DNA of 64,000 nucleotides from a virus. Shown one piece after another: positions 205 through 27,200 of this stretch; the stretch's first letter is position 1, and each line of letters begins with the position of its first letter. Below the pieces are notes generated by a model. That model did not search any database. It worked only from the letters and a program-made list of their open reading frames with translations, and was not told the origin of the DNA. The stretch spans positions 1 to 64,000 of IMG/VR virus record IMGVR_UViG_3300028025_002046; one strand, 5' to 3'. The translations under genes were made by a program, and so were the position numbers.

Positions 205-3200
205 TTAGATTACCTCACTTACATAGATTGTCATGTCTGGTCCATTAGATGACTTTGAATATTCTACGTGATAAACAACGTAAGAACTAGCTGTGTCAGA
301 TATGACGTTTTGACTATTAGCATCGTTTGGATCTGACTTTTCCTTATAGTCTATCTTAATCATATCACCAACTTGAATAAGAGAGTTGGCAAAGATTTTT
401 ATACCCATCATTTTCCTAGGTTTCATAATCTTTGAGATGATCCATTCCATCATATTGTTTGCAGAGTCCTGGCTTTGAATATATGGTGCTGCTAACGTAA
501 AGTCTTTCTTTCCGTAAGTAATTCTACTATCTTTAATTTGAGAGAGGGTATTCCCTGCCTCAGTAGCTGCGGACAGCCCATTGGATCCAAATGAAATACT
601 ATTAAAATCACTCTTCTTTTTCATATACTCATCTACCGTTAGGTCGTGGTCGGACTGCTGAGTAAATGTAACGCCCTGAATTCTTAAGTAATTTCCACTA
701 GTGCTATCTAGCACAATTGTCGAATCGCTAGTATTGAATATCATAAACTCTGCACCATAGGCATTAGCAGTAAAACCAGACACAGAGTATCCCTGGAAAG
801 CATTAAAGGTTGGTGATAGTTTTGCGTAAAGTGCAGGATACGCCTTATCATACTTAATGTTAAACATTGCACACTCACGCATGATTGAGCCAAACTCTTC
901 AAAGTATATATCATAGTTTGGAACTCCAGAAAAGCTTATTCCAGACAATGCTGTATCTTTAATCAAACCGCTCATAGAATATTTTCTAAGGCTTCCATTT
1001 AAAGACTCTCTGCTGTTTACACCAAATACCTCGCTAATTGCTGGTGGCGTATCGAATCCTCTTTGCTCTCCCTTATCGTCAAATCTACTCTTAATAGCAT
1101 ATACGTTTTCAAACATGCACTTTGAAGATCCTCTAACAAATAGTGCTATGTTTTGAGTTACTGGCAAAGCCTCTGTGTCTGTTACCTTGGCTACAAACTT
1201 ATCGTTAATATATAGGTAGAACTCTATCTGATTCTTCTTATCCTTTACTTCTCTATACTCTACCGCAATATCGTTAACAGCAGCATTAGGTTCACCTGTC
1301 ATCTTGTATTGACCAGTAAAGCCTCCGTCGTCAACGGTTATTTGGGTTTTTCCTTTCCAAAGAACAATTGGGATTGCATCGGCGGTGCGAGTTTTCCCCT
1401 TTTCTCTTTGAATCTTGTAAAAGAAAACATTGTAGATTTCTGTATCCTTATTATCGCTTGTGTATAAGCTGTCATAGGCGAGTAGGCTGTTGTCTGTTAG
1501 TGCCACTACCTCCATGTAGTATCCCCTGTTTGTCGCTGGATCAACCATAATTCCAAGACCGCCAGAAGATCCAGCCACAGATGTAACATTCTTTAATCCA
1601 GTATCCGCTTTAACGTCTAAGAAATTCATGGCACCTGTAGGATTTTGAGTTCCATCACTACTTCCAAGCTCTCCCACAACTCTCATTCTAGTTCCAAAGT
1701 GTCGGTAAGAGCTTTCTGTTCCCATATTCTTGTGAACATAAGAAACATATTTAAGTGGTTTTTCTGATGTTCCAAATACTGGTCCACTCATTACCAAGGC
1801 AGATGCCTGAACTGTTCCAGTAATAGATATGTCATTCTTATTTAGAACATCTTCTGAAATATTTCTTGAAGACCCGATTGATCTAATTATTCCTGTCACA
1901 TATGGCTTTTTGTCTAGAACTTGTCCAACTGGAACCAGGTCATCAACCACTGTGTCTGGAACTGTTCCGCCAGCAAACAGAAGTTTTGTGTTCATCTGGA
2001 AAGCTTTCTTTGCGGCATCAGTAGTCCATTCTTCTTTAAGACCTGCTGAATGATAGGCGATTGGTGTGGAGAACTGCATACGACCATGCCTAGCAACAGC
2101 AGCCATATTGACATAAGGATTAACCTGATTCATGCTGGCTCTTCTAACAATGGGAACATCTGTATTTGGATAATATGGCTTTGACGTATCTATAGAACCA
2201 TCTTTATTATAATATGGCTCTACAAATATTCGGACCTCTCCTGTTGGATACATTTTTCCACCAAACGGCATTTTGCTAAAATAGTTAGAGTATTCTTCGG
2301 CATCACGAATCCAGAATAGGTTGGATCTTTCTTTTGCGTTAAAGTTTATTTCGCCTGAGATTAGATGTGGCGAGCTTACGGCAAATGTGGTTGAGTTGTA
2401 TATTTCAGTAACTACAGCGTCTGAGACAAAGCATCCAAGACCAGCATCTCCATCGTCTTTAGTAAGCACTTGACCAATGGACATTTTTGATGTTGTTCCA
2501 TAACTAAGAGTTACTGTACTTTGTCCAGCAACAATGGTAGCCTCAAGATTAGTCACTGGCATTGTTGGAATGTTATATCTAACAGCATCATACTTAATAA
2601 CCTCTCCAGCAGAATAGAAATATCCATTGTATCTTGGAAGCCAATATACAGCCTCTCCAAGATCAATGGTGTTATTCTCTATTTCTCCAGTTGTTTTATT
2701 TACTCCTGGTACAGCATTTGTCAAATCTGTCTTTAGTGGGATAGCGGCTAGTGAGTATTTAGACTGAACTCCACCATTATCGTTGAGTGGTCTAACCTGT
2801 TCTTGTGGTGCTACCTCCCAAAGAAGAACAGGCTGATAGTACCAAATCTTTTCTGAGTTTAGCAAGCTTGCTTCCTGTAAGCTTCCATAGCTTCTCTGAA
2901 TATACTTTGTCGAATACTGAATCTTTCCATCGTTAAACGATTCGGAGTTTTCTGAAGATATGTCAACAATATTGGCAGGAAGAACAGGATTCTCACCATT
3001 CAAAATTCTGCTGTTCTTAATGATTCCAGACTGCTCTGAGTCAGCAGATCCTCTGATTGTGATTGTTCCTGCCTGAGATGCTCTTCTTGAGGATAGCATG
3101 TATTCTCTACTCATAACAACGAAGTTATTGTATTCGTCAAAGAACATTGCTGACTGTGTTGATATTGCAAGTGCCTCTAATACCTGGACGATATTCTGAT

Positions 3201-5511
3201 CTGGACCTACAAAGAAGTATGGAATTACTGCCTCTACCTCATCTGGCTCTCTGTAGAATATGTAGTTTGAGAATCCAATTGAGTCTAGCAATGATGCAAC
3301 AGCAAAACTTACGGATGCGTTTGGCACTAAGACTTGAGGAGAGTTTGAAGACTCAAACAAGAAGAATAAATCTCTTAGACTTAGGCTAACAGATCTTTCT
3401 GTATGGTTGGTCTGAGGAAGTCCGTCAATATACATTGTCTTAAGTGGAACGTGATAGCTAATTCCATTATCGTCGTAGATAACGTCGTATATCTTAATCT
3501 GTAGGTTGTTTGATGGTATAGAGTAATTTCTGGTATCTCCAGAATATGTGTTTAGGATGCTGTTCTTGTTGTGAATATTAAAAGCCATGTCGTAGTCAAA
3601 TAGTGATAATGACCCTGTGGATGCCAGCAGTCTTCCAATAGGAAGTCCATCTGTTCCCAGGTCTGCAGAACTCTTATTAATAGAAAAATCTTTTGTCTTA
3701 TCTGACAGGTCAACAACTAGTCTTGGTGACATTTCGATTAGGTCGAATGGTGTGTCGGATGTATTCATTGTGTCAACCACTAAGCGAATTCCGTGAATAT
3801 ACTGAAACTCTCTGTAGATGATGTTGTCGTTTTGGTCGGTATATGATGGGGCAGAGGTTAGGTCCTTTACGTATGCCGTCTTGCTTGATGGTGTTTCTGA
3901 GCCAACATACCAGCCATATTCTGGAATAAAAGAGTAGTAGCCAGCAATTGGGTGATGACCATCTGAATTTTCATTGTCTACGCCATCCCATACATAATAC
4001 TTTCCTACAGAGTTTCCTTCTTTAACTAAATAAGTATACCCAGGAATTGACTCTACAGGCAAGGAGTTAACTGAGGAATACTCTTCTGCAAAGACAATGT
4101 TCATTGCTGATATGTCGTAGTTGCTAGTAGTGTATAGAAGACCATACGAAAACTCTATGTATCCATCGTCACCGATAAGTGCTGGGTTTGTTAAGGATAC
4201 TGCCGTATTCCAGTTATTTTGCTTGTCTAAATACTGAACCCTCCAGACTTTAGGAACTGTTTTATTCTCTAGACCTACAAACGGATCTTTAATATTGCCA
4301 AAAGTTTTATACTCGTCTGTTTCTTTAGCTACGTTTGTCTGCATTTTAACCACAATTCTATTAGCTGGAACATGGTTGTTGTAAACTACGAATGGGGCAG
4401 CATCGTCGATATATTTATTTGTAGCATCAATCTTTGAGATTCCTCGCTCTGCGGTGAAGTCATACAGAGCAACTACTCTACCTATTTTTGAAGCGTAGCT
4501 AGAATCTATCTTTATATTTCTCCACATCTTATCTGCGTATAGTTTATTACTAATCTTAAAATATGTGCTTGTAGAATCTGTAACAATGATTCTGTCAGAG
4601 ATAGACTCTACTGGAATGTTGGTTTCTGTTACAGTTCCGTCTTTGATTGATATTACCTGACCAACACTAAATACGTTTGAGTATCCTGTTAGATATGTAT
4701 ATTTGATGGTTCCAGTTACGCCAGTAATCTTTCCGCCAGATGTGTAGGTTGCGGTGAATGTTGTTGGTGCTTTTACAACAACTGTGGTCTTTGTTGCAGA
4801 TACTACATCTACGTTAGTGAGGTTAAATGCTGATGGGGTAACATTTGTAATTGATACCTGCTGTCCTTCGGTAAAAGTATTGTTTACGGTATAGGTAACT
4901 GTGGTTACCCCAGATGCCGTTACTGCTACTGCACCAGTGATAGTTTCTTCTTTTAGCTCTACGTCAATGCTTGCTACTTCTGCCAGAACATCTGCACCAG
5001 CATTATTGCTTTCTTTTCTAAATGAAGTCCAATACTTAAACTTGTCATCCTTGTCTGCAATATAGTATCTTGGTCTAATGAAAGTATTCTTGTCGTTTTC
5101 TATTCCAGAAATATATCTACCCTGGAACATTGTGAGCTTGTTGATACCTGAGCGTGGTCTAAACTTTTGAAAGCAGTCTTCTAGAGAATAAAGAATGTTT
5201 GTCTTTTGATTCTTAGACAGGAAGGTAATAGGGATACCTGTTTCATTATATCCTCCGTCTGTGATTACGTCAGACTCTGTGAAACCCAAATACTGCTTGT
5301 CTGCTGTAGATATAGTTTCTTCTACAAACTTGTTAGCAATAGTAAAGCCACCCTGTGACGGTCTATTCTTGTAGTTTCCAACAAGTTTGATATTGTCAAA
5401 CATGTTAAGATTCCACTCAGCAATTATTTGAGATTGTGTGTGAATAGTATTTGCAGAGTCTACGTATTCTAATAGTGTCGTTTCACTGCCAACAATGTTG
5501 GTATTAAACAT
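205..5511 (-). CDS. Large minor tail / baseplate protein (1768 aa)
   Basis: This very long protein follows the tape measure and a 209-aa tail protein, the usual place of the tail-tip (Tal-like) hub and adhesin. Residues about 190-275 hold two Ser/Thr/Val-rich beta segments that look Ig-like. About residues 1330-1480 (VGELGSSDGTQNPTG, then YYMEVVAL) resemble a LamG/concanavalin-like sandwich. The C-terminal part (residues about 1660-1768) has regular beta strands ending in a DMTIYVSEVI strand. It overlaps the upstream gene by one base (TAATG-type junction). The tail-tip role is inferred from position and size; no catalytic motif is evident. Confidence 0.75.
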   Translation of the reverse strand: MFNTNIVGSETTLLEYVDSANTIHTQSQIIAEWNLNMFDNIKLVGNYKNRPSQGGFTIANKFVEETISTADKQYLGFTESDVITDGGYNETGIPITFLSKNQKTNILYSLEDCFQKFRPRSGINKLTMFQGRYISGIENDKNTFIRPRYYIADKDDKFKYWTSFRKESNNAGADVLAEVASIDVELKEETITGAVAVTASGVTTVTYTVNNTFTEGQQVSITNVTPSAFNLTNVDVVSATKTTVVVKAPTTFTATYTSGGKITGVTGTIKYTYLTGYSNVFSVGQVISIKDGTVTETNIPVESISDRIIVTDSTSTYFKISNKLYADKMWRNIKIDSSYASKIGRVVALYDFTAERGISKIDATNKYIDDAAPFVVYNNHVPANRIVVKMQTNVAKETDEYKTFGNIKDPFVGLENKTVPKVWRVQYLDKQNNWNTAVSLTNPALIGDDGYIEFSYGLLYTTSNYDISAMNIVFAEEYSSVNSLPVESIPGYTYLVKEGNSVGKYYVWDGVDNENSDGHHPIAGYYSFIPEYGWYVGSETPSSKTAYVKDLTSAPSYTDQNDNIIYREFQYIHGIRLVVDTMNTSDTPFDLIEMSPRLVVDLSDKTKDFSINKSSADLGTDGLPIGRLLASTGSLSLFDYDMAFNIHNKNSILNTYSGDTRNYSIPSNNLQIKIYDVIYDDNGISYHVPLKTMYIDGLPQTNHTERSVSLSLRDLFFLFESSNSPQVLVPNASVSFAVASLLDSIGFSNYIFYREPDEVEAVIPYFFVGPDQNIVQVLEALAISTQSAMFFDEYNNFVVMSREYMLSSRRASQAGTITIRGSADSEQSGIIKNSRILNGENPVLPANIVDISSENSESFNDGKIQYSTKYIQRSYGSLQEASLLNSEKIWYYQPVLLWEVAPQEQVRPLNDNGGVQSKYSLAAIPLKTDLTNAVPGVNKTTGEIENNTIDLGEAVYWLPRYNGYFYSAGEVIKYDAVRYNIPTMPVTNLEATIVAGQSTVTLSYGTTSKMSIGQVLTKDDGDAGLGCFVSDAVVTEIYNSTTFAVSSPHLISGEINFNAKERSNLFWIRDAEEYSNYFSKMPFGGKMYPTGEVRIFVEPYYNKDGSIDTSKPYYPNTDVPIVRRASMNQVNPYVNMAAVARHGRMQFSTPIAYHSAGLKEEWTTDAAKKAFQMNTKLLFAGGTVPDTVVDDLVPVGQVLDKKPYVTGIIRSIGSSRNISEDVLNKNDISITGTVQASALVMSGPVFGTSEKPLKYVSYVHKNMGTESSYRHFGTRMRVVGELGSSDGTQNPTGAMNFLDVKADTGLKNVTSVAGSSGGLGIMVDPATNRGYYMEVVALTDNSLLAYDSLYTSDNKDTEIYNVFFYKIQREKGKTRTADAIPIVLWKGKTQITVDDGGFTGQYKMTGEPNAAVNDIAVEYREVKDKKNQIEFYLYINDKFVAKVTDTEALPVTQNIALFVRGSSKCMFENVYAIKSRFDDKGEQRGFDTPPAISEVFGVNSRESLNGSLRKYSMSGLIKDTALSGISFSGVPNYDIYFEEFGSIMRECAMFNIKYDKAYPALYAKLSPTFNAFQGYSVSGFTANAYGAEFMIFNTSDSTIVLDSTSGNYLRIQGVTFTQQSDHDLTVDEYMKKKSDFNSISFGSNGLSAATEAGNTLSQIKDSRITYGKKDFTLAAPYIQSQDSANNMMEWIISKIMKPRKMMGIKIFANSLIQVGDMIKIDYKEKSDPNDANSQNVISDTASSYVVYHVEYSKSSNGPDMTIYVSEVI

Positions 5512-6140
5512 TATGCCTCTTCCAGCGTAAGGCTAATGTTCCAGAAGTCATAGCTGTTCTGAGTAGTTCCTCCACGCTTTTCAATAGAGTAGTTGAAGTC
5601 AGATATATACATTTCGATTACCTGACTGTATTGCTTCATGTGGGCATAGGATGTAACGTCATCTCCGAATGCTGGATGGTTATCGTATGCCAAGTAAACC
5701 CAGAATGGTCCAATGTGATTATTATACCAATCTAAGATTTCTGCACCTGCAGCACCATTATCTGTTGTGTGTGATAGATATGGAAGCTCTTCTGTTCCTG
5801 CCCCTGGTTTTCCAGTAGAAGAATTGAACGCTGTAGGTCTATTAGATGCCCTTGATGGCAACATGTCCCAAGATACGCTGATGTTTAACTTGTCTGCAAC
5901 ATGGTATGAACGCATACGACCATTAATCATACGCTCACGCTTTTCAATACGGTTGACTTGAAATGCCATTGGAGATCTATTGTCATCTGTCAGAATAATG
6001 AAGTCTTGGTATTCTGTGCCATCTGGAACATATACCTGGGTCTCTCCAAGGGTCTGAAGAGTTCCAGAATTGTCTGCCCAGAGCATTCCTTGCGGACGCT
6101 GGTATTTAATTCTACCATTCATGTAAGCTGCTGAAGCCAT
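5511..6140 (-). CDS. Tail protein, probably distal-tail-like (209 aa)
   Basis: A 209-aa protein lies between the tape measure and the large minor tail protein, overlapping each by one base, so the three are probably translationally coupled. It is beta-rich, with aromatic segments (WDMLPSRASNRP, FWVYLAYDNHPAF) and an acidic C-terminus. Phages commonly place a distal tail protein here, and the size is close. The identity is inferred from position; I recognise no family-specific motif. Confidence 0.6.
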   Translation of the reverse strand: MASAAYMNGRIKYQRPQGMLWADNSGTLQTLGETQVYVPDGTEYQDFIILTDDNRSPMAFQVNRIEKRERMINGRMRSYHVADKLNISVSWDMLPSRASNRPTAFNSSTGKPGAGTEELPYLSHTTDNGAAGAEILDWYNNHIGPFWVYLAYDNHPAFGDDVTSYAHMKQYSQVIEMYISDFNYSIEKRGGTTQNSYDFWNISLTLEEA

Positions 6141-9100
6141 TAGTATCTATTACTCCTTGTTGTCTGGGCATCAATTCTCTGAATTTGAGCCATAACAGTT
6201 CTAGCAATATCATTAGGGTCTGATGCAGAGCTAACGTTTACGCTGATACTGTAACTATTACTATTATACACGGAATCGCCTACGGATGTTTGGCTGTTAG
6301 CTGAAGCACTCTGTAGTGCCTGACCACTGTTAATTGCCTTTAGATTATCTACCCCAAAGTTTTGAACAGCAGAGCGACTCATAACAAATTCACCAGGGGT
6401 AAGCATAGCAGGAATAGTGTCTGTTCCACTAGCATATCCACCAGCATTAAAATAGGAAGGCTTAATCTTAGAAACCATTCCACCATTAGCAAGGGTAGGT
6501 CTTCCTTCGGAATCGAATGTTTGAAATCCCTTAGATCCTAATGGGTTTCTGAAGTCCATTCCTGTCATCTCTTGCAGATAACTTGTTCCAAATAGATAAT
6601 CTGAAATTGCAGCAAACTCTGGACCACCCAATACGCTAAAAGCTCTTCCAAATCTTGAAAATAACTTTGATACTGATTTCCACATATTTGGTGATGTTGG
6701 ATCTATTCCAGGAGCGGCTTCATAGGTTCTTCTTCTTTGAATGTCTTCTAAGAATGATTGTGGAGATGATGACTTTGAGTAACCCCTAGCCTTATCTATT
6801 TCTCCATTTTTTTCTTCATTTCTAATTTTTCTATAGGTTTCAGCCCTCTCCGATCCCCAAAGAATTTCATTCAAGCCTAGGCTTGCCTTGTTCTTACTGT
6901 CAAGGTCTATGTGGTATGTCTTAGAGCCGTCTTTAGCAGTTGAAACCTTTCTAAGTTTTATGACTTGACCTCTAGCAAGTAAGCCGTCCACTACATTTGA
7001 CTCTGGAGAATCTAGCAGAGGGTTCATGTCTAGAATTCCAGGAACATCACTCTTTACATTAAATTTAATTAATGGAGATTTGTTAGATGGATCATAGTAT
7101 CTTCCACCAGTATTAATTGTTCCATCTCTCATACCCTCTACAAAATCTACAAAAGTTCCATTTCCAATATCCGCCTTTTGGTTTGGTGTGGTAATTGACA
7201 GGAACTGGTCAAGAATCGCACTCTGACCAGGCTTTAGCAATGACAGAGCCTTAGCGTCATGTGTATTTGCTACCCTAAGAATGCTAGACCCAGCAGGAAT
7301 GGATAACTTGTTTCTGGATATAAGGTTATCTATTCTTTTTCGAGCCATATCCTGAGTACTATTGTGAAGGGTAAGTGGTCTCTTGATGTACTCCGCCATA
7401 GTCCATTTTTCATCAGCATCTGCGGAACCAGGTCCAACCCTGCCACCATCTGCATACTTTCCAACCATGCCACCCATGGCATAAGCTCCGCTTGCAAATG
7501 GAGACCTGGATTGTCCAGGAAGGTTAGGCATTCCCATACTGCTTGTTCCAAGTAGAGCGTCAGCAAGGAACATTCCTTCTGGACCGCCAATTCTTCCAAG
7601 GGTTCTTAGTAATCCAGAAAGCATACCTCCACGCACTCTACCACTTGGTCCATAAACCTTTGTCTTTATTCCAGAGTTACGCAATTCATTGAAAACATCT
7701 CGTGCGGCATCGTCTGAACTGTGGACACGAATCTTTGCAATTTCGTCTAGAGTAAATCCACCAGGAGTCTGTGTTTCAAAATATCTTGGCTTGTTGTTAA
7801 TAGAATATGCGTTTTCGCCTATCTTGTTTGTGCCAAATCTCATGTTAAGTCTATCCAGAGCTGCTCTCTTAAGAATGTCTGATTTCTTTCCAGATATTGG
7901 CACTGGACCAAAGTTATCTCTTCCAAACAATCCATTTCTAGCATATGTCTCTAGGGTATCGCCAGTATAGAATGTTGATCTATTTTTTACTCTGTTTTTA
8001 GTGATAAGAGATATGTCACCATATCTGTCTAGCTGATCTGAGTTAATATCTGATACTAGGTTAAATCTCTTTCCAGTTTTTCCTCCTAGTGTTCTGTTAA
8101 GGCTTTCCAAAATCTTTGAGTCTGTAACCAATGACCCATACGTTGGTCTTGCTTGTGGTTTAGCTGATTTAGGTATTCCAAGAGCATCTGCCTCCATATT
8201 AAGTCTGGTCCACTTAGCTCTTGAGTTTTCGTTTACATCTTTAAAGTCTTCTCCAGAACCAGTTTCAAATGCGTTCTTGTATCTTCCATCTCCAGCAATC
8301 ATAGACATAAGAGCATCTTGGGTTGTTCTTGCTGCAAGCTTTGTTCTCTTTAGCATTTGTGGTAGAAGTAGGGATGCAGACTTAGATGGCTGTATGAATT
8401 TTTTACGTTCATTATTTCTGAAAGCACGTAGACGTTCTACTATACCACCATCTGCAAAGTGAAGTCTAGTAGAGGTGTTGTTAGAAAGCGTTGGATAGAT
8501 ATGACCATCCATTATTATCTTTTCAATTCTCTTCTGTTCTTTATCTAACTTAATTGGCTTATCAGATAGCAAGCTATCATCTAGTCCAAATGACTTCCAA
8601 ATACTGTCAAAAGCTGCTGGTCCGTATAGAGACTTAATTGATTTTGCAAATGTTTTAGCTTCTTTTTGATCAAGACCATTCCATGGTCCGTATGTTCTAT
8701 TTTGAATAAGTTCTTGCTGTGTAAAGTTGTGTGCTCCTTCGATAGATATAAAGTCTTTTTCTCTATAGTCATTCGCTGGACCCTTGATGAAACTTTCTAA
8801 CTTTCTTCTATTTTGCATAAGAACCTTGTAGTAGACAAAAGCATCTTGTGCCGAGTGGAAGGCATATTTACCTGGACCTATTTCTCTAAATGCATTAGTT
8901 GGCTCATATGAGTCCGTAAAACTATTATAGATAGCACCTGGCAATGCACTTACCTCTTTATAGTTTCCATCATAATTAAAGTAGTCTGGAGTCATGCCCT
9001 CATTGGTTTTAACATTTGGAACATTATAAAATAGTGAAGCTTTATGTTCGCCAAGCCTAAACTTGCTTAGTTTCTTTTTATCGCTTCTATCTACAACAGG

Positions 9101-12100
9101 TCCTGGCAAAAGACCCTGCCTGATTCTATCTGCTCTATCTGCCATCCTAGCATTTCTAGGTACTACCTTGCCACCCTTAGCAAATCTTCTAGCGAATCCA
9201 CCAATACCAAACTTTTCAGCGTGGTTCATTCTGTCAAGGGTATCTACACCAAGAGCCTTTACAGCCTTTGCTCTAATTACATATTCTCCATTAGAAAGCA
9301 TAGCTGGAATATCATCGCTAGTTCCAGTTCCTGGACCCATTACGCTACCGCCTGGACGATAGTGGTTAATCATTCCACCAGTAGCAGCGTTCTTTGGCTT
9401 CTTGTTTACAGCCCAGAAATTAATTTTTGCAATCTGCTCTTCTAGAACTGCAATCTTTCCCTCAAGGTATGAACGTGTTCTTCCTAGTGGGTCGGTAACC
9501 GCATCTAGTTCCATCCGACGTGCTGCATCAAGGTTGTCTCTCTGTCTTTGAATCTGTAAGTTCTGTTCGTTAGCTCTCATTGTTTGTGCTGCACTAGCCG
9601 CTGCACCAATATCACCACGAGATAGAGCATCTGCTAGGTCTAGTTGGTCACGCTGTTGCTGAGAGATCTGATCATTAAGTTCTTGAACTTTATCAAGTGC
9701 TTCAATACGCTTGTCATATTTTTTATTAATTTTTTCTTCTGCAATAGCTATTAGGTCTATTCCTGCCTGATACTTGTCAATCTTTTTATTAGCTGCAGTT
9801 ATTCTTGGATTTTCTCCGTCACCAGGTGGTGGAACTACCTTTTCGGCTGCAGGAATATTTCCTATTAGAGCCTGTAGATCAGCCTCAAGTTTATTTGTTG
9901 GCAAACCAAGAGTTTCTGCTGACTTGATAGCATTTATCAGTGCTAGGACTTTTTCTACGTTTGCTCCGCTTGCAAGTGCCAGAACTCCAGCAAGCTGACC
10001 CCTAACGCTTTTTATTCCAGATATTGTCTTAGCAATTTCTGGGTTAGTTACTGAAAGTTGACGAATTAAAGTTTCAACCAAAAGTGGTCCCTGGTCAGAT
10101 CTACTAACTGTATTAATTAATTCGTTTACTCTATCCTGATATTGAGTCATTGTTATATCTCCACGGTCCAGTGCAGACTCTAGTGCATCAAATGTTGAAG
10201 ATATAGACCCAGACGCAGTGCTTAGGGCATCGGTAAATGCTGGATTATTCTTTAAAAAGTTTTCAATATTGGTGTTTACTTGTTTAAGATATCCTGAATA
10301 CTTGGCAATTGCTGTATCATCTCCAGCAGCCATTGATTCTTCTAGCTTGCCCTGTATGCCGCCCTTGATCTCTAGAAATTGTTTATAGGCATCTTGCATT
10401 CTATATTGTGGCAACATGTCAAGAGCACTTACTGGTGAGATGTTGTCTATTGGTGTAACATTTACTCCAGCAAGCATGGCTTGTTCGTTTGCAACGTATA
10501 GATCTCTAATTATACTGCTTTCAGTATAGGTCTGACTAGAGAATGATTTTAGCATAGCTAGGCTATCCTCAACAGCCTTTTGTGCTGCTTGTCTTCCAAC
10601 ATCTGTAGTTACGTCAACAACGGCAAATTGAAGGTTTATGTCTGTTCTTCCTGCCTCGTCTTGAAGAGCTTTTACAATTACAGAAATCTCATCTTTAGCA
10701 AAATCTTTAGAAAGACCTAATGAAAGATTGCTAATTAGTAGATTTGCATTATCTGTGCTGGCTGTTTTTAGTTCATCAATAATTTCTTTGTAATTCTTTT
10801 TAAAGTCTTCGCTTTTTCTCATCTCTGATGCTGCCATTGACATTGGGTCTGTGATTCCTTGGTCTGCCGTGGCAGTGATAGATGATATATAAGAACTTGT
10901 TGTTGCTTTTCCAAAAAAGTCTCCAAAGAATGATTTATCTTCTTTAGACATATTTGCAGCTTTTGCCTGTGCTTTTATCGACTTGGCTCTTTGTCTTTCA
11001 GCCTCTCCCAGTTTATCAACAACAAAGGCGAGTCCTGTAAGTGCAGTAACAGCAATACCTATACCTGGCAAGAATCTCGCAATCCCCAATGCAAGTTTTG
11101 GAAACATTGAAGCTACTCCAGCAACTTGTGCTCCAATTCCAACCATATTTGCAACATTCTGATCTGGAATAACAGATGCAGCGAGACCACCAGCCATTGC
11201 AATTCCAGTTCCTACTCCAAAACCTCTCATGCCACCGACATACTTGGCAGCTCCTGCGGTACGTCTATTTTGAGAGGCTTTTCCAAATCCAAACAAAGAT
11301 GGCTTCTTGTTCATAGATGCTTTTCTCTCGGCACCCTTAGCCTTTCTAGCCTTTTCATCAATCTTCTTTTGGTCTCTTACTGCCTGAATTTGTTCTTGGG
11401 TAGGGTCAACAGTTCCATAGAGTCTGAGCATGTTGGCTTCTTGTGCCTGGGACTTAGACCTTTTATTTGCAATTGTTGCTCTACGTTTTTCGGCAGCCTG
11501 TGCTTGAATTGCATCATATTCTGCTAGGACACGCTTCTGCTTTACTGTTAGCTTTTTATTAAGCTTTCTTTCTTCTCTTGCTCTAGTTAAATATTCTTTT
11601 GCAGTTTCTTTAGAAGACTTGGCTACTGACTCATCAGCTTGTGCTGTTTCTTTCTTTGCCTTGGTTGAACGCCTTGTTGCTTCTATCTGCTTTTTACCCT
11701 CGGCAACCTCGGTCTGTCTCTGTCCCTGTTTTGATGCTGCAGTCTTTAAGAACTCATCTCGTTCTGACTTCTCAGCATTTGCTAGTTCTCTGGAAACACT
11801 TGAAACTGCCTGATCCTGGTATCTTCTGTTAGATTCTTCTGAGAAAGTATAGCCTCTCTTTGCTATTTCTTCCTGATTATAAAACTTTCCCTTTGCTCTT
11901 CTTTTCAGAATTCTTTGTGCACCAGTGTATTTAAATTTTTCAAGCGGTGTTGTAGCGTTTTCAACAGCAAGCCCCATGATCTTTTCTGCAACTGCTCTTT
12001 GCTTTTGAGTGACAACGTGACCACCCTTAAATATTTTCTTGGCAATGCTGTCAACCTCTTTGGGATCCATGTCCAAAGAGGTTGATATAGTTTGTAGTTT

Positions 12101-14656
12101 TTCTGCGAACTGTGCCTTAACCTTGCCGCCTGTTGAGGAAGCACTTCCGCCCATCTTAAGATCATTAATAGACTTATTAATAACTCCGTAGTCAGCGAAT
12201 AGATTCTTTGGTCTCCAGTTTTTAAACGATCTTGATGCTCCAAATCCAATGTCTCTTGATGTTGTGTCCTCGTTTAGGTGAGAGGCATCGACTCCAAGAT
12301 AATTTTCTCTGATTCTCTGCTTTTTGCTTTGCTCACTATTAAGATCGATTCCCATTTCGGCAGCTAGACTTTCTAGTATTGCAAGCTCTTCATCTCTGCC
12401 CTGCCATTTCATGTCTCTTGACTGTTTCCTAATTGCATCTGGTGCAAACTCTGTCTTGGTCTTTTTCTTTAGCCTTGCACCAAGTGCTCTTTTGCCAACG
12501 CTAAATCCAGGAATATTTCCATCAATAAGTGAGTTTACTAGGTCTGGGTATTTGGCAACATTCTTTGCAGGAATAATGGCTTCTCTATTAGATACTCTAG
12601 CAATAATAGAATCTGAGGTTCCAGTTCCAGGACCACGGATAATTCCACCATTGGCAAATTTCTTTGTAGGTCCTGCTTTACCCTTGCCACCTGTAGCGAC
12701 AGGCATTAATCTTTGAGATGCTAGAACAGCTCTTTCGTATGCTGAGGCAAGCTTGTTTACAGAACCTGCCTCTACATTAAATGTTTGAATAAGTTTTCCA
12801 TGAACCTGGTCAAGAGAGGCGGCAACAGCCTTAGCCTTGATCTGCTCTTCTGTCATGTATCGTGTTTCTTGTCCCAGGATTTCAGACGACGTTTGAACTC
12901 TATTAAACATGCTCTTTAAAGCAGCAAAACCTTTAATAAGGTTGGCAAAGCCGTTGGCTACAAGACCAAAGGTCATTAGCAATACTGGACCTAGACCTGC
13001 AACAATGCTAGTAAATCCAACTATAAATGTTTTTGTTCCATCACTAAGACCATTAAATGCTTTTAGTATACCGTTTACCCAGTCAATAATTGGTGTAACA
13101 AACTTCATAAATGCTTCACCAATTGGTGCTAATTGAGTCTGGAAGTCTTGAATTGCTTTTTGGAACTTGTATAGTGGTGAAGATGATAGCTGTCTAAGTT
13201 CTCGTGCTGCTAGAGCAGCCAACTCTATTGAAGACTTTTGAGCAAGCTGTGCCGTTGTTGCTGCTTGGCTAGAATCACTTGCAACGTTTTTCATCAGAGT
13301 GGAGATACGAGCAAACTGGAACTTGCCGAATAGTTGCTCAATCGCTTTTGCACGGTTTAGAGGATCTAACTTGTCAAGTGCTTTGGCAAACTCTGTTACT
13401 GTTCCACGAACATCTCCCTTGTTTGTTTTAACAATCTTTTCTAAGTTAATACCAAAACCCTGTAGCATTTGTTTTGCTTTACCTGTTGGATTAATCATTG
13501 CTGCAAGACCAGACTTTAGTGCGTTAGCACCTTCGGATGCATTAATGCCACCTTCACGCATAGCGGTTAGGAAGAATGCTAAGTCTTCTACGTCTCCACC
13601 AAGTTGTTTAATAACTGGACCAGCTTTTGGAATAGCGATTGTGAGGTCTTCGATGCTTACTGCTGTCTGGTTTTCTACAGCGTTTAGGAAGTTAATCTTT
13701 TTACCGAGATCTTCTGCTGCTGTTCCAAATGTATCTGTTAGACTAATAGTAGTTTGCAATGCTTGCTGTTGTTCTACCTGACCAAGTACGGCTAGTTTCG
13801 AAGCCTGTTGTACCTGACCAAGAAGGTCTGCACCAGTCTTACCCATTGCTGCAGCCTTAGATGCCATCTCCATGGTATCGCTAACTGCAAGCCCATACTT
13901 TGTAAACTCACCAGCTAGTCTTCTAATACTTTCAGCCATGGCATCTGTGTCTTTAGCACTTGTAGAGAGATCTCCGTATACACGCTTAAAAGAAATTATT
14001 TGCTTTTCCATGTCAGAGAAGGCTTGCATTGCTTTACCAGCAAAAATTCCCAAAGGAATTGTAAAACCAACCATAAGCTGACGACCAGCCCACTGAGTAT
14101 TCTTACCCCAATTGAGCATCTGGGTTGAACCCTGCTTTAGCAGTTGATTGAGAAGTTGCTGCTTCTGTGCAGCAATAGCAGTCTTGGTCTGAAGGTTGTT
14201 CATGTCAAGAGCAAGTGGTCTTACCTGAATAGCCTTCATTGCACCATTGGCATCACGACCTAGTTTAATGTATTGTGTTTGTAAACTCTTTACTCGCTCT
14301 ACCGCAACTTTTTCAATAGTTGCAAATTCTCTAGCAAAACTTCTACCAAATGATTTTGATGCTCCACCTGCATAACGGAAATACTCACCCATTGTGAGCT
14401 TGTTCTTTTCAAGTGCGTTTGTAAAAGACTCTGCAGTTGTTTTTACTGTGGTCATGCTGGCAGCGAATTTGCCAGTCGCATTAATGTTGTCGATTAGTGA
14501 TCTCTGTACCCCAGCAGCCTGTGCTCTTTGGGTTGGACCAAGCCTGGAGAGTTGTGTATGAAGGGCTGACAATTCACTCTGCAGGGCTTTAAGACCTGTC
14601 AGAGCTTTTGATGTGTCAATATTTAAGCCAATATTAGCCTGTACATCATCAGCCAT
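6140..14656 (-). CDS. Tape measure protein with inserted enzyme-like domains (2838 aa)
   Basis: The largest gene in the window follows two tail-chaperone-like genes, as tape measures do. The N-terminal half is helical with a membrane-active region near residues 540-580 and Ala/Lys/Glu-rich coiled coils around 1000-1150. From about residue 667 a linker with GPGTGTSDSI and REAIIPAKN appears; related linkers recur near 1757 (GPGTGTSDDIPAMLSNGEYV) and 2742 (SGTDTIPAMLTPGEFV). Between the later linkers are compact non-coiled segments: about 1875-2065, about 2100-2345 (RPTYGSLV then DRYGDISLITK, resembling DUF3626) and about 2420-2690 (ILRVAN, FLSITT, PESNVVDG, weakly like an ADP-ribosyltransferase fold). 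At the usual 0.15 nm per residue the full length would give a tail near 0.4 micrometre, less if the domains do not contribute. Domain calls are from memory and tentative. Confidence 0.9.
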   Translation of the reverse strand: MADDVQANIGLNIDTSKALTGLKALQSELSALHTQLSRLGPTQRAQAAGVQRSLIDNINATGKFAASMTTVKTTAESFTNALEKNKLTMGEYFRYAGGASKSFGRSFAREFATIEKVAVERVKSLQTQYIKLGRDANGAMKAIQVRPLALDMNNLQTKTAIAAQKQQLLNQLLKQGSTQMLNWGKNTQWAGRQLMVGFTIPLGIFAGKAMQAFSDMEKQIISFKRVYGDLSTSAKDTDAMAESIRRLAGEFTKYGLAVSDTMEMASKAAAMGKTGADLLGQVQQASKLAVLGQVEQQQALQTTISLTDTFGTAAEDLGKKINFLNAVENQTAVSIEDLTIAIPKAGPVIKQLGGDVEDLAFFLTAMREGGINASEGANALKSGLAAMINPTGKAKQMLQGFGINLEKIVKTNKGDVRGTVTEFAKALDKLDPLNRAKAIEQLFGKFQFARISTLMKNVASDSSQAATTAQLAQKSSIELAALAARELRQLSSSPLYKFQKAIQDFQTQLAPIGEAFMKFVTPIIDWVNGILKAFNGLSDGTKTFIVGFTSIVAGLGPVLLMTFGLVANGFANLIKGFAALKSMFNRVQTSSEILGQETRYMTEEQIKAKAVAASLDQVHGKLIQTFNVEAGSVNKLASAYERAVLASQRLMPVATGGKGKAGPTKKFANGGIIRGPGTGTSDSIIARVSNREAIIPAKNVAKYPDLVNSLIDGNIPGFSVGKRALGARLKKKTKTEFAPDAIRKQSRDMKWQGRDEELAILESLAAEMGIDLNSEQSKKQRIRENYLGVDASHLNEDTTSRDIGFGASRSFKNWRPKNLFADYGVINKSINDLKMGGSASSTGGKVKAQFAEKLQTISTSLDMDPKEVDSIAKKIFKGGHVVTQKQRAVAEKIMGLAVENATTPLEKFKYTGAQRILKRRAKGKFYNQEEIAKRGYTFSEESNRRYQDQAVSSVSRELANAEKSERDEFLKTAASKQGQRQTEVAEGKKQIEATRRSTKAKKETAQADESVAKSSKETAKEYLTRAREERKLNKKLTVKQKRVLAEYDAIQAQAAEKRRATIANKRSKSQAQEANMLRLYGTVDPTQEQIQAVRDQKKIDEKARKAKGAERKASMNKKPSLFGFGKASQNRRTAGAAKYVGGMRGFGVGTGIAMAGGLAASVIPDQNVANMVGIGAQVAGVASMFPKLALGIARFLPGIGIAVTALTGLAFVVDKLGEAERQRAKSIKAQAKAANMSKEDKSFFGDFFGKATTSSYISSITATADQGITDPMSMAASEMRKSEDFKKNYKEIIDELKTASTDNANLLISNLSLGLSKDFAKDEISVIVKALQDEAGRTDINLQFAVVDVTTDVGRQAAQKAVEDSLAMLKSFSSQTYTESSIIRDLYVANEQAMLAGVNVTPIDNISPVSALDMLPQYRMQDAYKQFLEIKGGIQGKLEESMAAGDDTAIAKYSGYLKQVNTNIENFLKNNPAFTDALSTASGSISSTFDALESALDRGDITMTQYQDRVNELINTVSRSDQGPLLVETLIRQLSVTNPEIAKTISGIKSVRGQLAGVLALASGANVEKVLALINAIKSAETLGLPTNKLEADLQALIGNIPAAEKVVPPPGDGENPRITAANKKIDKYQAGIDLIAIAEEKINKKYDKRIEALDKVQELNDQISQQQRDQLDLADALSRGDIGAAASAAQTMRANEQNLQIQRQRDNLDAARRMELDAVTDPLGRTRSYLEGKIAVLEEQIAKINFWAVNKKPKNAATGGMINHYRPGGSVMGPGTGTSDDIPAMLSNGEYVIRAKAVKALGVDTLDRMNHAEKFGIGGFARRFAKGGKVVPRNARMADRADRIRQGLLPGPVVDRSDKKKLSKFRLGEHKASLFYNVPNVKTNEGMTPDYFNYDGNYKEVSALPGAIYNSFTDSYEPTNAFREIGPGKYAFHSAQDAFVYYKVLMQNRRKLESFIKGPANDYREKDFISIEGAHNFTQQELIQNRTYGPWNGLDQKEAKTFAKSIKSLYGPAAFDSIWKSFGLDDSLLSDKPIKLDKEQKRIEKIIMDGHIYPTLSNNTSTRLHFADGGIVERLRAFRNNERKKFIQPSKSASLLLPQMLKRTKLAARTTQDALMSMIAGDGRYKNAFETGSGEDFKDVNENSRAKWTRLNMEADALGIPKSAKPQARPTYGSLVTDSKILESLNRTLGGKTGKRFNLVSDINSDQLDRYGDISLITKNRVKNRSTFYTGDTLETYARNGLFGRDNFGPVPISGKKSDILKRAALDRLNMRFGTNKIGENAYSINNKPRYFETQTPGGFTLDEIAKIRVHSSDDAARDVFNELRNSGIKTKVYGPSGRVRGGMLSGLLRTLGRIGGPEGMFLADALLGTSSMGMPNLPGQSRSPFASGAYAMGGMVGKYADGGRVGPGSADADEKWTMAEYIKRPLTLHNSTQDMARKRIDNLISRNKLSIPAGSSILRVANTHDAKALSLLKPGQSAILDQFLSITTPNQKADIGNGTFVDFVEGMRDGTINTGGRYYDPSNKSPLIKFNVKSDVPGILDMNPLLDSPESNVVDGLLARGQVIKLRKVSTAKDGSKTYHIDLDSKNKASLGLNEILWGSERAETYRKIRNEEKNGEIDKARGYSKSSSPQSFLEDIQRRRTYEAAPGIDPTSPNMWKSVSKLFSRFGRAFSVLGGPEFAAISDYLFGTSYLQEMTGMDFRNPLGSKGFQTFDSEGRPTLANGGMVSKIKPSYFNAGGYASGTDTIPAMLTPGEFVMSRSAVQNFGVDNLKAINSGQALQSASANSQTSVGDSVYNSNSYSISVNVSSASDPNDIARTVMAQIQRIDAQTTRSNRY

Positions 14657-14682: not shown

Positions 14683-14997
14683 TTATAGGTTAGGACCTAC
14701 TGAACCAGTCATGTCGATTCCTGAAGCGGCTTCGATAATCTGGTATACGGTTGGGAGGTCTACTAGATCTTCCAATCCCTTTGCATCGACCACTAGGTCT
14801 GGTGCATACTGCTTTAGTGCAATGCCAACACAGTCGATCAACAGGTCCATCGACTTGTCGTTATCTTCTGCTACTGTTGCTAGTCCATCAAACTTCTTCA
14901 TAAATTCACGAAGTAGTGAGATCTTTAGTGGACGAGCTGATAATTCTGTTCCGTTGAGAAGTGTAATCTTCTTCTCTTCATTTACGGTTACTGCCAT
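14683..14997 (-). CDS. Short tail assembly chaperone-like protein (104 aa)
   Basis: An acidic helical 104-aa protein lies immediately upstream of the tape measure. It aligns by eye along its length with the first ~100 residues of the preceding 228-aa gene: RPLKISLLREFMKKF versus APLKIKYLRQFMQKF, and YQIIEAASGIDM versus YKIVDAAAGIKI. It has its own ribosome site (AGGAGGATATC before ATG) and its own extended -10 promoter. It therefore looks like an independently translated copy of the chaperone N-domain rather than a frameshift product. Chaperone function is inferred from position and paralogy. Confidence 0.75.
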   Translation of the reverse strand: MAVTVNEEKKITLLNGTELSARPLKISLLREFMKKFDGLATVAEDNDKSMDLLIDCVGIALKQYAPDLVVDAKGLEDLVDLPTVYQIIEAASGIDMTGSVGPNL

Positions 14998-15040: not shown

Positions 15041-15727
15041 TTACCATTTTTCGTAAGATAATCCATTACCAATACCAAAGCCAGCCTTAGCAGCGTTAGC
15101 ACCCTGTAGGGAAACAATGTCATTTGGATCTCCTGTTTGTCCTTTACTGAATACTCTAGCCTTCATTGCTTCCCATGGATTGTCTTCTTCTTTGCCAGAT
15201 TGAGCATCTAGGTCTACCCCCTGGATTGCAGCAAAAAACTTCTTTTCCTGATAATCTAGCTCTCTTTTTGCTTCAAGCGTTGCTGTTAGTTCTGGTAGCG
15301 ATAGCGACATTTCTAGTTCGTCATAGTCTTTCCAGATACCAATAAGAAACGCTTCGGACTCTAGTTTTGCTAAATCAAACTTATCCCAGGTATTGTCGCT
15401 ATTAACAGCTTGTTCTTTTACTGGCTCATCTTTCTTGCTTTCGTCAATCTTGATACCTGCTGCTGCATCTACTATCTTATAGATTGCTTTAATATCAAAG
15501 TTATCTTCTACGTCATCTACAGTTTTAAATGCTGGATGATATTGCTGCATTGCAATCTGTACACACTCAGTTAGTTGTGATATTGCTTCCATGTCGTCCT
15601 CTGACGTTTTTACAGATTGAAACTTTTGCATAAATTGTCTTAGGTATTTAATCTTAAGTGGTGCTAAAACTATCGTAAGACCATCTACTGTGTCTACGTA
15701 TTCTACTTTATATATATTAGTTGCCAT
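15041..15727 (-). CDS. Long tail assembly chaperone-like protein (228 aa)
   Basis: The N-terminal ~100 residues are paralogous to the next gene. The C-terminal half (SQLTECVQIAMQ to the end) adds a charged Glu/Lys/Asp-rich extension ending in ANAAKAGFGIGNGLSYEKW. Long and short forms of a tail chaperone are normally produced by a frameshift in one gene; here two separate genes could supply them. No slippery heptamer was recognised at the end of the shared domain. The ATG is exactly 6 nt after a TATACT -10, so the mRNA is probably leaderless. Confidence 0.75.
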   Translation of the reverse strand: MATNIYKVEYVDTVDGLTIVLAPLKIKYLRQFMQKFQSVKTSEDDMEAISQLTECVQIAMQQYHPAFKTVDDVEDNFDIKAIYKIVDAAAGIKIDESKKDEPVKEQAVNSDNTWDKFDLAKLESEAFLIGIWKDYDELEMSLSLPELTATLEAKRELDYQEKKFFAAIQGVDLDAQSGKEEDNPWEAMKARVFSKGQTGDPNDIVSLQGANAAKAGFGIGNGLSYEKW

Positions 15728-24235: not shown

Positions 24236-27200
24236 TTATCTTGGATCTGCGGTAATTCTATCCCACTTTGTACCAAGATACGTAACATACTGATATTTCT
24301 GGAACCTAAGCACATTAGCGTTCTCATTTGCATCTGAGATTATCTTGTTTGTACCAATATAGATCTTATAGATTTCTGATGGATTGATAGGTGGGATAAC
24401 CTCAGCCTTAAAGTATAGTAGGCTCTTCCAGGTTATTGGATTTGTTTCTGCGTATTCTCTCCAGTCGTATGTGGTAGAGCCTTGCCAAGCCTGATTCCAC
24501 GTTCTCTTAACAATTTGCTGTGTCTGTGCTAGTTCGCTTAACTGATAGTAGGAAAGGTTATTCAATACAAAGTTGTTTCTTATCCTAAAGCTTCCTAGGG
24601 ATCCAGAGAAGTCAAGGAATGGGAAGAATACGAGACCTAGCATTGCCCATTCATCTATGTTTAGTACTGGATACTTAACTGTATTTCCATTTAGGAAGTA
24701 TTCTAGTGATGTGTAATCTACCTCGTCATAAACATCGTCGATCTGGTTGTATACCAGCCTCTTTGCGAATACCTTTGCTCTTGTTTGTGCAGAGTTTACA
24801 GATTCAATGTAGAAAAGTATGTGAGCCGTTCCAGATATGATTTCGAACATTTTCTCTGGTGATCCAGCGGCTGGGAATAATCCAAAATTCCAAAGAGCCG
24901 AAAACTGCAAGGAACTAATGTTGAAGAATGGGTCAATATCTTTATTGATTGGAATCATAATTCCTTTTTCAAATTCGGGGTTATATGGTGAAACCATAGA
25001 TATTCCAGAGTTGCCAGTAAGGTATAGGTATGGAGTGCTTCCTTTATATATTCTAACTGGGTTGTAATTTTTGTAGCCAACCTCATCTCCATACTGAACA
25101 TATGGATGAGCGTACTCTCCAAACCTGCTTCCAATTCCGTTGATCGGAATAGATGCTGAAACAGAGTTATCTTCAAGTGCTCTTGATGCATACTGCAATG
25201 ATCTAATATTTATTGGCTTTACTAATGAATTTGAAATAATTTCAAACAAAAGAGATATTGATAGGTTGTCAAGCGATTCTGTTTCACTAAGGCTGGGCAT
25301 TGTAATGACTGAACCATCGACTACCTCGTAAAGATCTGTCTCCCATTCATTAGTTACATCTACGTTGCCGTTTTTAGAAGCTGCCCTTCTGGTGAAGCCA
25401 GAAAGGTCTCTATGCATTCCCTCGTTCATTCTTTGCAATGAAACATAAGCCCTGACGCTTTCCTTTGAGGTATCTAAAAAGTTTCCGTCTATAATTCTAG
25501 ATTGTGGATAGTTAAAATTAACCTGGATAGTATCTATAGTATTTTTTGCTTCTCCAGAAAAGAACTTTTTGGTAGATAGATATGCCAAAGACATATAATC
25601 TTCCCAATATGAATATGATTTAACATCAAGCAGGGAAACGTCTACAATTCTATTGTGAACTAGCGTGTAGCTTGCGACTTTTTCTCTCAGGGTATCAAAT
25701 ACTGTGTAGTTACCAACTATAATTCCATTTGTCTCGTATTCTGAGTAATCTTTTGCATTTTTTTCTGTTGAAAAGCAGAAAGAGTGTATTCTTCCAGTAT
25801 ATGTATTTGACGCTAGGCTTTCTGTACCAGAATAATCCCCACCCAATAATACCTTGAGGGAATCTGGATTTCCAAAGAATCTTGCGTATTCGCTAGACAA
25901 TGATGCAAGAGTGTTGGCATTAATTCCAACCACAAATTTCTCTGTTTGATATTCCATATTTGTTATATCGAATGGCGTTATCATGTCGGATTCTTCTTCG
26001 CCGTTTTGCTTGAAGACAAGGCTAACAAAATTATTGGATAGTGATGCTTTTATATATTCGTTATTCTCGTTTTGAATCTTGAAAAGTATTTGCTCTTCTT
26101 CTACCTGAGAGCCTCCCTCAAATACTCCAAAGATTAAATCATTTCTTGGAGATACATTTTTAAATGAATCAAATATGAGGTATGAGTTGACATTATCCCA
26201 AGCTGCTGATGGCTTTAGGCAGATAAACTGTTGATCATATAGGTTTGCGTCATAGCATTCATTTAGGACTTCCTGTATGGTATTTGTTGTGCTAGAGACG
26301 TATCTAGGTAGGGTATGATTTGGAGATGATAGCAGATCATTGATTGTTATTACATTGTCAGATATTCCTTGGTCCCATTTTCCGTGATCTGGATATAAAA
26401 AGTTTCTTGCATACTCTGCTGCAGCATAGTCTACGAAGAAAGACTTTCCGTCAAATGCTACGTTTATATCTTGTGGATAGGCTACGGCTTGTCCATAGGT
26501 AAATGTTCTTTTTGCCAAATCCTCTGGCATCATGTATGGGTATAGGGCTACTGCATCTACCTCTAAAGTAGGTAAATCTGCGTAGGCATAGAAACCTAGA
26601 AAGTCCTGAGTCTTAAAGTTTTCATCTGTGGCTTGCGACTCATTGAAGAGTGACGAAGATCTGTCTAGACTTTTACCACCTACGAAAGTTCCATTAATAA
26701 ATAACCTTATGTCTGAATCTGAAATCAGTAGGTGAAGTAGCATTGGCTTAAACCATTCTCCAACGTAGTGAGAAAGAATTACGTTTCCATACCTTACGAT
26801 TAGGTGTGGTCCGTTAACATATATTCCATTATCTGAATTAAGGGGACCGATGATTTTTCTATAGTCATTTGGCGATACCCTGGAGTTGACCCTTAGCCAT
26901 GCCTCAAGTGTCATTGTAGAAGATCTAGAGTTTTCATTCATAAAGCCGTGTGCTGGCACAATTAGAGACGGCTCGTTATTGGCATTAGCAACAAGGATGG
27001 TTGAGTTTGAAGCACCGAATACCATTGGGACTGTTGAGTTTTTTGCTAAGAGTTTTTTATTTTTTATAAGATATAACCCAGAGTCTGCATTATAAGATCT
27101 TCCGTATGCTTGTGCAATAATCGCATCGTCTGCAACTGTAGATATGCCTGAGAGGTCGTAGCTAAGACCATTGACACCAACAGACACCTTGTTAAATTCC

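What the first reader, a model, noticed from the sequence alone, without database searches (positions are those of the whole stretch)
6140..9400. Tape measure with toxin- or enzyme-like inserted domains
In the last third of the 2838-aa tape measure three compact segments sit between repeated Gly-rich linkers (GPGTGTSDDIPAML type). One (about 2100-2345) recalls DUF3626 (RPTYGSL, RYGDISLI), and another (about 2420-2690) has an R, S-x-T and ES-containing layout like ADP-ribosyltransferases. The first (about 1875-2065) also looks globular. Tape measures are ejected into the cell, so these could be delivered effectors.
Basis: inference. Interest (0 to 1): 0.68.

Follow-up and report, generated by a model that had tools for sequence, protein, structure and literature searches.

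The report
Phage tape measure carrying enzyme cassettes
The protein that sets the tail length of this virus of (probably freshwater) bacteria carries swappable enzyme-like modules between repeated linkers; one is built like an ADP-ribosyltransferase, the kind of enzyme pathogens inject into cells, which suggests that the phage delivers enzymes into its host through its tail.

Summary
The 2838-aa tape measure protein (TMP; 6140-14656, minus strand) has full linkers at aa 671-714, 1773-1811 and 2742-2776. About 930 aa lie between the last two, holding three segments (D1, D2, D3).

D2 (aa 2076-2345), called DUF3626-like, is the ART. A 22-sequence alignment gave an AlphaFold2 model (pLDDT 78.9, pTM 0.77). 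Its best PDB matches are the ADP-ribosyltransferase SopF (E 2.6e-6, probability 1.00), then DarT enzymes. The family profile hits only SopF among 177,635 PDB sequences, weakly (E 0.005). Window D2 alone scores below the Pfam threshold for DUF3626; two bridging phage relatives pass it.

D2 relatives occur in about 20 other phage TMPs, directly after the first linker. Several are exact linker-D2-linker units; in the window D2 has moved to the C-terminal slot. Other TMPs hold different enzyme-like inserts (HAD phosphatase, GNAT-, nucleotidyltransferase-, kinase- and PARP-like).

D3 as an ART is not supported, and D1 and D3 have no detectable relatives. Best reading: a TMP-borne array of delivered effector cassettes. 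Activity, delivery and target are inferred, not shown.

The parts
6140..14656 (-). Tape measure protein ORF, 2838 aa
   Evidence: Pfam PhageMin_Tail 2.3e-25 at aa 253-444; PHROG tape-measure families
12515..12646 (-). Linker 1 (aa 671-714), end of the conserved TMP core; D2 relatives sit directly behind this linker in other phages
   Evidence: linker HMM E 1.8e-13; same position in most related TMPs
12923..13033 (-). Membrane-helix-like stretch (aa 542-578)
   Evidence: hydropathy 1.96
11000..11095 (-). Membrane-helix-like stretch (aa 1188-1219)
   Evidence: hydropathy 2.09
9413..9793 (-). Conserved segment (aa 1622-1748; treated as coiled coil) that marks the end of the tape proper
   Evidence: found in most related TMPs
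9224..9340 (-). Linker 2 (aa 1773-1811), start of the cassette array
   Evidence: HMM E 2.1e-15
9149..9211 (-). Joint FGIGGFARRFAKGGKVVPRNA (aa 1816-1836) in front of D1
   Evidence: repeats in front of D3; same joint GGKVxPRNAxxADxA twice in the L090 TMP
8465..9163 (-). D1 (aa 1832-2064), orphan segment of unknown function
   Evidence: no relatives in any search
7622..8431 (-). D2 (aa 2076-2345), DUF3626/SopF-type ADP-ribosyltransferase-fold domain
8138..8140 (-). Codon of Tyr2173 of the invariant RPTYG motif of D2
   Evidence: present in 22 of 22 aligned sequences
7775..7777 (-). Codon of Glu2294 of Y-F-E-T-Q, candidate catalytic glutamate of D2 (role inferred)
   Evidence: present in all 20 aligned sequences that cover the column
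7541..7606 (-). Trailer RTLGRIGGPEGMFLADALLGTS (aa 2351-2372) behind D2
   Evidence: repeats behind D3; ungapped score 48, best of 20 shuffles 47
7421..7483 (-). Joint YAMGGMVGKYADGGRVGPGSA (aa 2392-2412) between D2 and D3
   Evidence: repeat of aa 1816-1836, score 47
6707..7435 (-). D3 (aa 2408-2650), orphan segment; ART reading not supported
   Evidence: no relatives
6581..6646 (-). Trailer RAFSVLGGPEFAAISDYLFGTS (aa 2671-2692) behind D3
6329..6433 (-). Linker 3 (aa 2742-2776), followed by the conserved C-terminal tail
   Evidence: HMM E 4e-15; conserved in relatives

Best explanation
The region is an array of effector cassettes carried at the C-terminal end of a phage tape measure protein. 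Shown (sequence and model): the linkers, the modular and mobile nature of D2, and the ART fold of D2 (DUF3626/SopF family). Inferred: the tape measure is stored in the tail tube and leaves with the DNA; D2 reaches the host cytoplasm, refolds and transfers ADP-ribose from NAD to a host target (protein more likely, nucleic acid possible) early in infection, as T4 Alt does from the head. D1 and D3 are probably further cassettes of the same array, of unknown activity. Related phages exchange such cassettes at the linkers, so each carries its own set of enzymes.
For: D2 model pLDDT 78.9, pTM 0.77. Foldseek PDB ranks 1-2 are SopF 7dn9/7dn8 (E 2.6e-6, 5.4e-6, probability 1.00) and ranks 3-10 are DarT ARTs (E 4e-3 to 0.1; probability 0.77 to 1.00), with Tpt1, OspC3 and classical ART toxins below. 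The D2 profile has one hit in the PDB sequences, 7dn8 chain C, E 0.005, colinear over 212 positions. Bridging phage cassettes L167 and L177 pass the DUF3626 cut-off (27.7 and 28.6 against 27), and true bacterial DUF3626 proteins align along D2. Arg-Pro-x-Tyr-Gly and Glu219 of D2 are invariant. The D2 family is under purifying selection (dN about 0.04-0.29 against dS about 0.2-1.45). Every phage D2 relative fetched by its own search lies in a TMP, behind linker 1, and several are exact linker-D2-linker units; window D2 is in the other slot. Related TMPs carry other enzyme-like inserts, and TMPs 93.9% identical in the core differ by 1222 aa of inserts (L010 against L016). Literature: SopF contains DUF3626 (PMC6682159) and is an ADP-ribosyltransferase (PMC10333799); tape measure proteins act at the inner membrane during injection (PMC13190303); TMP-related effectors with variable C-termini exist in bacterial contractile systems (PMC13277306).
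Against: Nothing shows that D2 is enzymatically active, that it leaves the virion or that it reaches the cytoplasm; a folded ART domain must be unfolded or tightly packed in a tail tube. Window D2 alone is below the Pfam cut-off, and the PDB profile hit is weak (E 0.005). The structural alignment to SopF has TM-scores of only 0.41-0.49 and rmsd 8-9.5, so fold membership rests on the Foldseek probability, the sequence profile and the DUF3626 link rather than on a tight superposition. D1 and D3 have no assigned function. No immunity or target gene was identified.
Confidence: 0.66

Rival explanations
1. D2 keeps the ART fold but is a structural or binding module of the tail tip and no longer an enzyme.
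For: It sits in a structural protein; the match to SopF is remote (16% identity); the residue-level NAD site was not verified.
Against: The glutamate and the RPxYG motif are invariant from bacterial DUF3626 to window D2; purifying selection; related TMPs lack the domain altogether, so it is dispensable for tail building.
Confidence: 0.17
2. D2 is an active ART that modifies DNA or RNA, DarT-like, rather than protein.
For: DarT enzymes are the next Foldseek matches after SopF (E 4.1e-3, probability up to 1.00).
Against: SopF, a protein-modifying enzyme, is the clearly better match and the only sequence-profile match.
Confidence: 0.2
3. The cassettes act in the producing cell or during assembly (for example on tail proteins or against superinfecting phages), not after ejection.
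For: Late structural gene; no delivery data.
Against: Fusion to the one tail protein that is ejected; varied enzyme types in related TMPs; virion-delivered ARTs such as T4 Alt are known (PMC5512222).
Confidence: 0.12
4. D1 and D3 are only spacers or tape filler, and just D2 is a functional insert.
For: No homologues or folds for D1 and D3.
Against: D3 is followed by a trailer like that of D2 and preceded by a joint like that of D1; the joint before D1 also precedes metallopeptidase-like and GNAT-like segments in L090.
Confidence: 0.25

Closest known systems
DUF3626 (PF12294), with SopF of Salmonella as its characterised ART
   Same: Colinear motifs RYxxxFET, RPxYG, R[YF]G, GD, YxEx; top structural match; two phage relatives pass the Pfam cut-off.
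   Different: Here a cassette inside a phage tape measure, not a free or type III-secreted protein; window D2 itself is below the cut-off; target and any activator are unknown.
T4 Alt and MuF-VIP2 ART fusions (virion-borne phage ARTs)
   Same: ART carried in or predicted in the virion; Alt is injected and modifies host RNA polymerase (PMC5512222); MuF-VIP2 fusions in actinophages (PMC7302621).
   Different: Those travel in the head or portal region; D2 is in the tail tape measure and of a different ART family.
Polyvalent proteins (Iyer et al. 2017, PMC5512222)
   Same: Many unlike enzyme domains in one injected polypeptide, including ART and peptidase domains.
   Different: That paper contains neither 'tape' nor DUF3626; here the backbone is the tape measure and the units are bracketed by a dedicated linker.
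Sle1/Tme TMP-related effectors of contractile injection systems (PMC13277306)
   Same: Tape-measure-like carrier with exchangeable functional C-termini.
   Different: Bacterial nanomachines, with helix-rich functional domains in Sle1; here true phages with several enzyme-like cassettes per protein.
Mycobacteriophage TM4 tape measure with peptidoglycan hydrolase motif (Piuri and Hatfull 2006, cited in PMC13277306)
   Same: Enzymatic motif within a phage TMP.
   Different: That one acts on the cell wall for entry, not on host cytoplasmic targets.

Membership tests
Phage tail tape measure protein | TMP core homology, very long late structural ORF next to other tail genes | tested here: met
   (minor tail protein downstream)
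DUF3626 (PF12294) | Score above the Pfam gathering cut-off | tested here: not met
   Window D2 alone 21.5 bits against 27; relatives L167 27.7 and L177 28.6 pass. Called a divergent relative, not a full member.
DUF3626 (PF12294) | Conserved motifs colinear with true members | tested here: met
   Alignment with L181, L183 and L184
ADP-ribosyltransferase superfamily | ART fold | tested here: met
   AF2 model and Foldseek: SopF, DarT and Tpt1 as top matches
ADP-ribosyltransferase superfamily | Catalytic Glu at the third motif | tested here: inconclusive
   Glu invariant in 20 of 20; superposition on a catalytic Glu not done
ADP-ribosyltransferase superfamily | NAD-dependent transferase activity | not testable with these tools
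   needs biochemistry
   No profile similarity; no model, since no homologues exist for an alignment
Polyvalent proteins | Several unlike enzymatic domains in one injected polypeptide | tested here: inconclusive
   Domain mix seen in relatives such as L103 (HAD 8.4e-11, GNAT 2.8e-3, PARP-like); in the window only D2 is assigned; injection not tested

The most novel reading that the evidence does not exclude
Tape measure proteins of a large group of environmental, probably actinobacterial, phages are general delivery platforms: a conserved linker brackets interchangeable enzyme cassettes (at least two ART families, kinase-like, HAD phosphatase, GNAT-like, nucleotidyltransferase-like, zincin-like) that are swapped between phages and injected as first-wave host-takeover or anti-defence effectors.
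Probability: 0.55. Interest if true: 0.86.

Novelty: new variant of a known kind. Interest (0 to 1): 0.74.

Why it matters
Virion-delivered phage enzymes are known from heads (T4 Alt, polyvalent proteins) and TMP-like effectors from bacterial contractile systems. A modular effector array inside true phage tape measures would add a second, tail-borne delivery route. It would explain why TMP length varies by more than 1000 aa between phages with near-identical TMP cores and supply a large pool of new host-targeting enzymes. The linker gives a simple handle for finding cassettes and, in laboratory phages, for testing delivery of cargo through a tail. It also places the SopF type of ART in phages.

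Tried and rejected
(1) D1, D2 and D3 as single queries against viral contigs, phage and plasmid records: nothing (D1 was not run against plasmids). (2) DNA similarity of the region to known phages: only a 78-base match in one phage. (3) First AlphaFold2 run on D2 with 7 sequences: pLDDT 39, discarded. (4) Genome-wide peptide scan with a 2-sequence D2 alignment: no relatives; replaced by a two-motif DNA pattern that fetched true DUF3626 proteins, of which L182 was a chance match. (5) D3 as an ART, and D1 or D3 as relatives of the PARP-like cassettes: no profile support. (6) D1 as a NADAR-like domain (my own first impression): no support in Pfam. (7) D1 or D3 relatives elsewhere in 42 virus records (the window's own and related ones): none. 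(8) NCBIfam: no helpful match. (9) Chance or misassembly: rejected, since the same linker and D2 family recur in many independent metagenome contigs.

Full report
What was checked. The window is 64 kb of a 94,588-bp IMG/VR virus record. ORF 6140-14656 on the minus strand encodes 2838 aa without a break and is a tape measure protein: PhageMin_Tail 2.3e-25 and PHROG tape-measure families down to 9.4e-103. It lies among tail and head genes: minor tail protein 208-5511, head protease, portal. The best cultured matches to its core are Streptomyces phages, at about 32% identity, so an actinobacterial host is likely (inference).

Linkers. The Gly-rich motif is a defined module. An HMM built from relatives finds it three times in the window and only in this ORF: aa 671-714, 1773-1811, 2742-2776. 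Among 90 complete distinct related TMPs, 57 have two linkers, typically one behind the core and one near the C-terminus; 22 have three and one has four. The region between the conserved coiled-coil-like segment and the last linker measures 15 to 1407 aa in 41 TMPs. The window has 1000 aa there, the third longest, while its tape region is about as short as that of the compact relative L010 (912 against 915 aa). The extra length is therefore the array in question. Inside it, shorter joints separate D1, D2 and D3, and a 22-aa trailer with GGPE and GTS is shared behind D2 and D3 (score 48, best of 20 shuffles 47; suggestive only).

D2 is an ART-fold domain. Pfam gives DUF3626 at 1.4e-4, below the curated cut-off. 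Searches with D2 profiles brought homologues from about 20 other phage TMPs. Two of them, L167 and L177, pass the DUF3626 cut-off. A two-motif DNA pattern taken from the family fetched three standalone bacterial DUF3626 proteins (Pfam 2.7e-87 to 1.5e-124). All align with window D2 along its length. Arg-Pro-x-Tyr-Gly is present in 22 of 22 sequences, and Glu219 of D2 (TMP residue 2294) in all 20 that cover it. With this alignment AlphaFold2 gave pLDDT 78.9 and pTM 0.77. Foldseek against the PDB ranks SopF first (7dn9 with NAD and 7dn8; E 2.6e-6 and 5.4e-6; probability 1.00), then eight DarT rows, tRNA 2'-phosphotransferase, OspC3 and classical ART toxins. TM-scores are moderate (0.41-0.49). The sequence profile of the family finds exactly one chain in the PDB, 7dn8 chain C, at E 0.005 over 212 colinear positions. 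SopF contains DUF3626 at residues 178-338 (PMC6682159) and is an ADP-ribosyltransferase with an I-Y-E triad (PMC10333799).

D2 is a mobile cassette. In every phage relative that its own searches fetched, D2 lies in a TMP directly behind linker 1 (where the contig reaches that far). In L130/L192, L193, L196, L197, L201 and L082/L198 a second linker follows at once or within about 25 aa, so linker-D2-linker is a discrete unit. In the window the domain sits instead in the C-terminal array. Pairs within the family show dN well below dS (0.036 against 0.31; 0.154 against 1.22). Outside TMPs, a more distant DUF3626-like protein lies next to the portal gene of lake actinophage DSL-LC01, another place from which phages deliver proteins (inference).

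Other cassettes. Related TMPs carry different enzyme-like inserts in the same two slots: HAD acid phosphatase (L103 8.4e-11 and L016 1.1e-6, both above cut-off; L033 and L038 just below), GNAT (L090, L103, about 2e-3, below cut-off), nucleotidyltransferase (L003 by motif, L196 0.025), kinase-like segments (L008, L016, L029, L025, L103; motif and weak Pfam), HExxH-like segments (L090; and HENSH in L025, weaker), and a second, PARP-like family with H, GxGxY and GYxGY motifs in L016, L029, L092, L100 and L103. A PDB profile search with that family touches PARP13 only weakly (E 0.26), so this assignment is by motif. L010 and L016 share 93.9% of the core but differ by 1222 aa: L016 has kinase-like, HAD and PARP-like inserts that L010 lacks. 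The tape core can thus do without them.

D1 and D3. Neither has a relative in any collection reached. D3 does not align with either ART-like family. The joint before D1, GGKVxPRNAxxADxA, recurs twice in L090, in front of its metallopeptidase-like and GNAT-like segments, which makes D1 likely to be a cassette too (inference).

How it probably works. Established: tape measure proteins fill the tail tube, leave it on infection and act at the inner membrane (PMC13190303, PMC13277306). Inferred: the array leaves with the TMP, D2 folds in the cytoplasm and uses NAD to modify a host target, as head-borne T4 Alt does (PMC5512222). Protein is more likely than nucleic acid because SopF is the better match, but DarT keeps the other option open. 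Anti-defence or takeover are the natural purposes; no data here choose between them.

Comparison and novelty. Virion-injected ARTs, polyvalent proteins and TMP-related effectors of contractile systems are known. The polyvalent-protein paper mentions neither tape measures nor DUF3626, and no paper surfaced in the open-access library searches that describes phage TMPs as linker-bracketed enzyme arrays. Most subscription papers and preprints were not searched. Verdict: a new variant of a known kind, with a broader claim worth testing.

Noticed in passing
L084 1841-2380 (also L082 51-617, L200): A separate small acidic gene about 4.4 kb upstream of the TMP begins with the same linker motif (NDVIPAVLADGEAVIPA), so the linker may be a docking or assembly signal, not just a joint.
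   Followed up: no
L207 5254-6654 (OQ999401, actinophage DSL-LC01): A DUF3626-like protein annotated 'cytoplasmic protein' lies directly behind the portal gene, a possible head-borne counterpart of D2.
   Followed up: partly
Mycobacterium phage D29, SWU1 and relatives, about 1.55-2.1 kb: Weak similarity of the L177 D2-like domain to gene 2 hypothetical proteins (E 7e-5 to 4e-2); could be ARTs.
   Followed up: no
L092, L100, L016, L029, L103 TMP inserts: A second, PARP-like family (H, GxGxY, GYxGYxHGD) shared among TMP inserts at different positions.
   Followed up: partly
L008, L016, L033, L038, L040, L103, L118 TMP inserts: A widespread kinase-like insert family of about 300 aa without a significant Pfam match.
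   Followed up: no
window 31218-35084 and 35087-36223 (-): Collagen-repeat fibre proteins (Pfam 7.3e-61 and 4.6e-47); the first also has an Mtd N-terminal domain and a Peptidase_S74 chaperone.
   Followed up: no
window 14686-14997 and 15044-15727 (-): Two adjacent genes in front of the TMP share the same PHROG domain (phrog_10504), a tandem duplication at the place of the tail assembly chaperones.
   Followed up: no
window 24239-27754 (-): 1172-aa protein without Pfam or PHROG match near the portal gene; it reads like a lectin-type adhesin.
   Followed up: no
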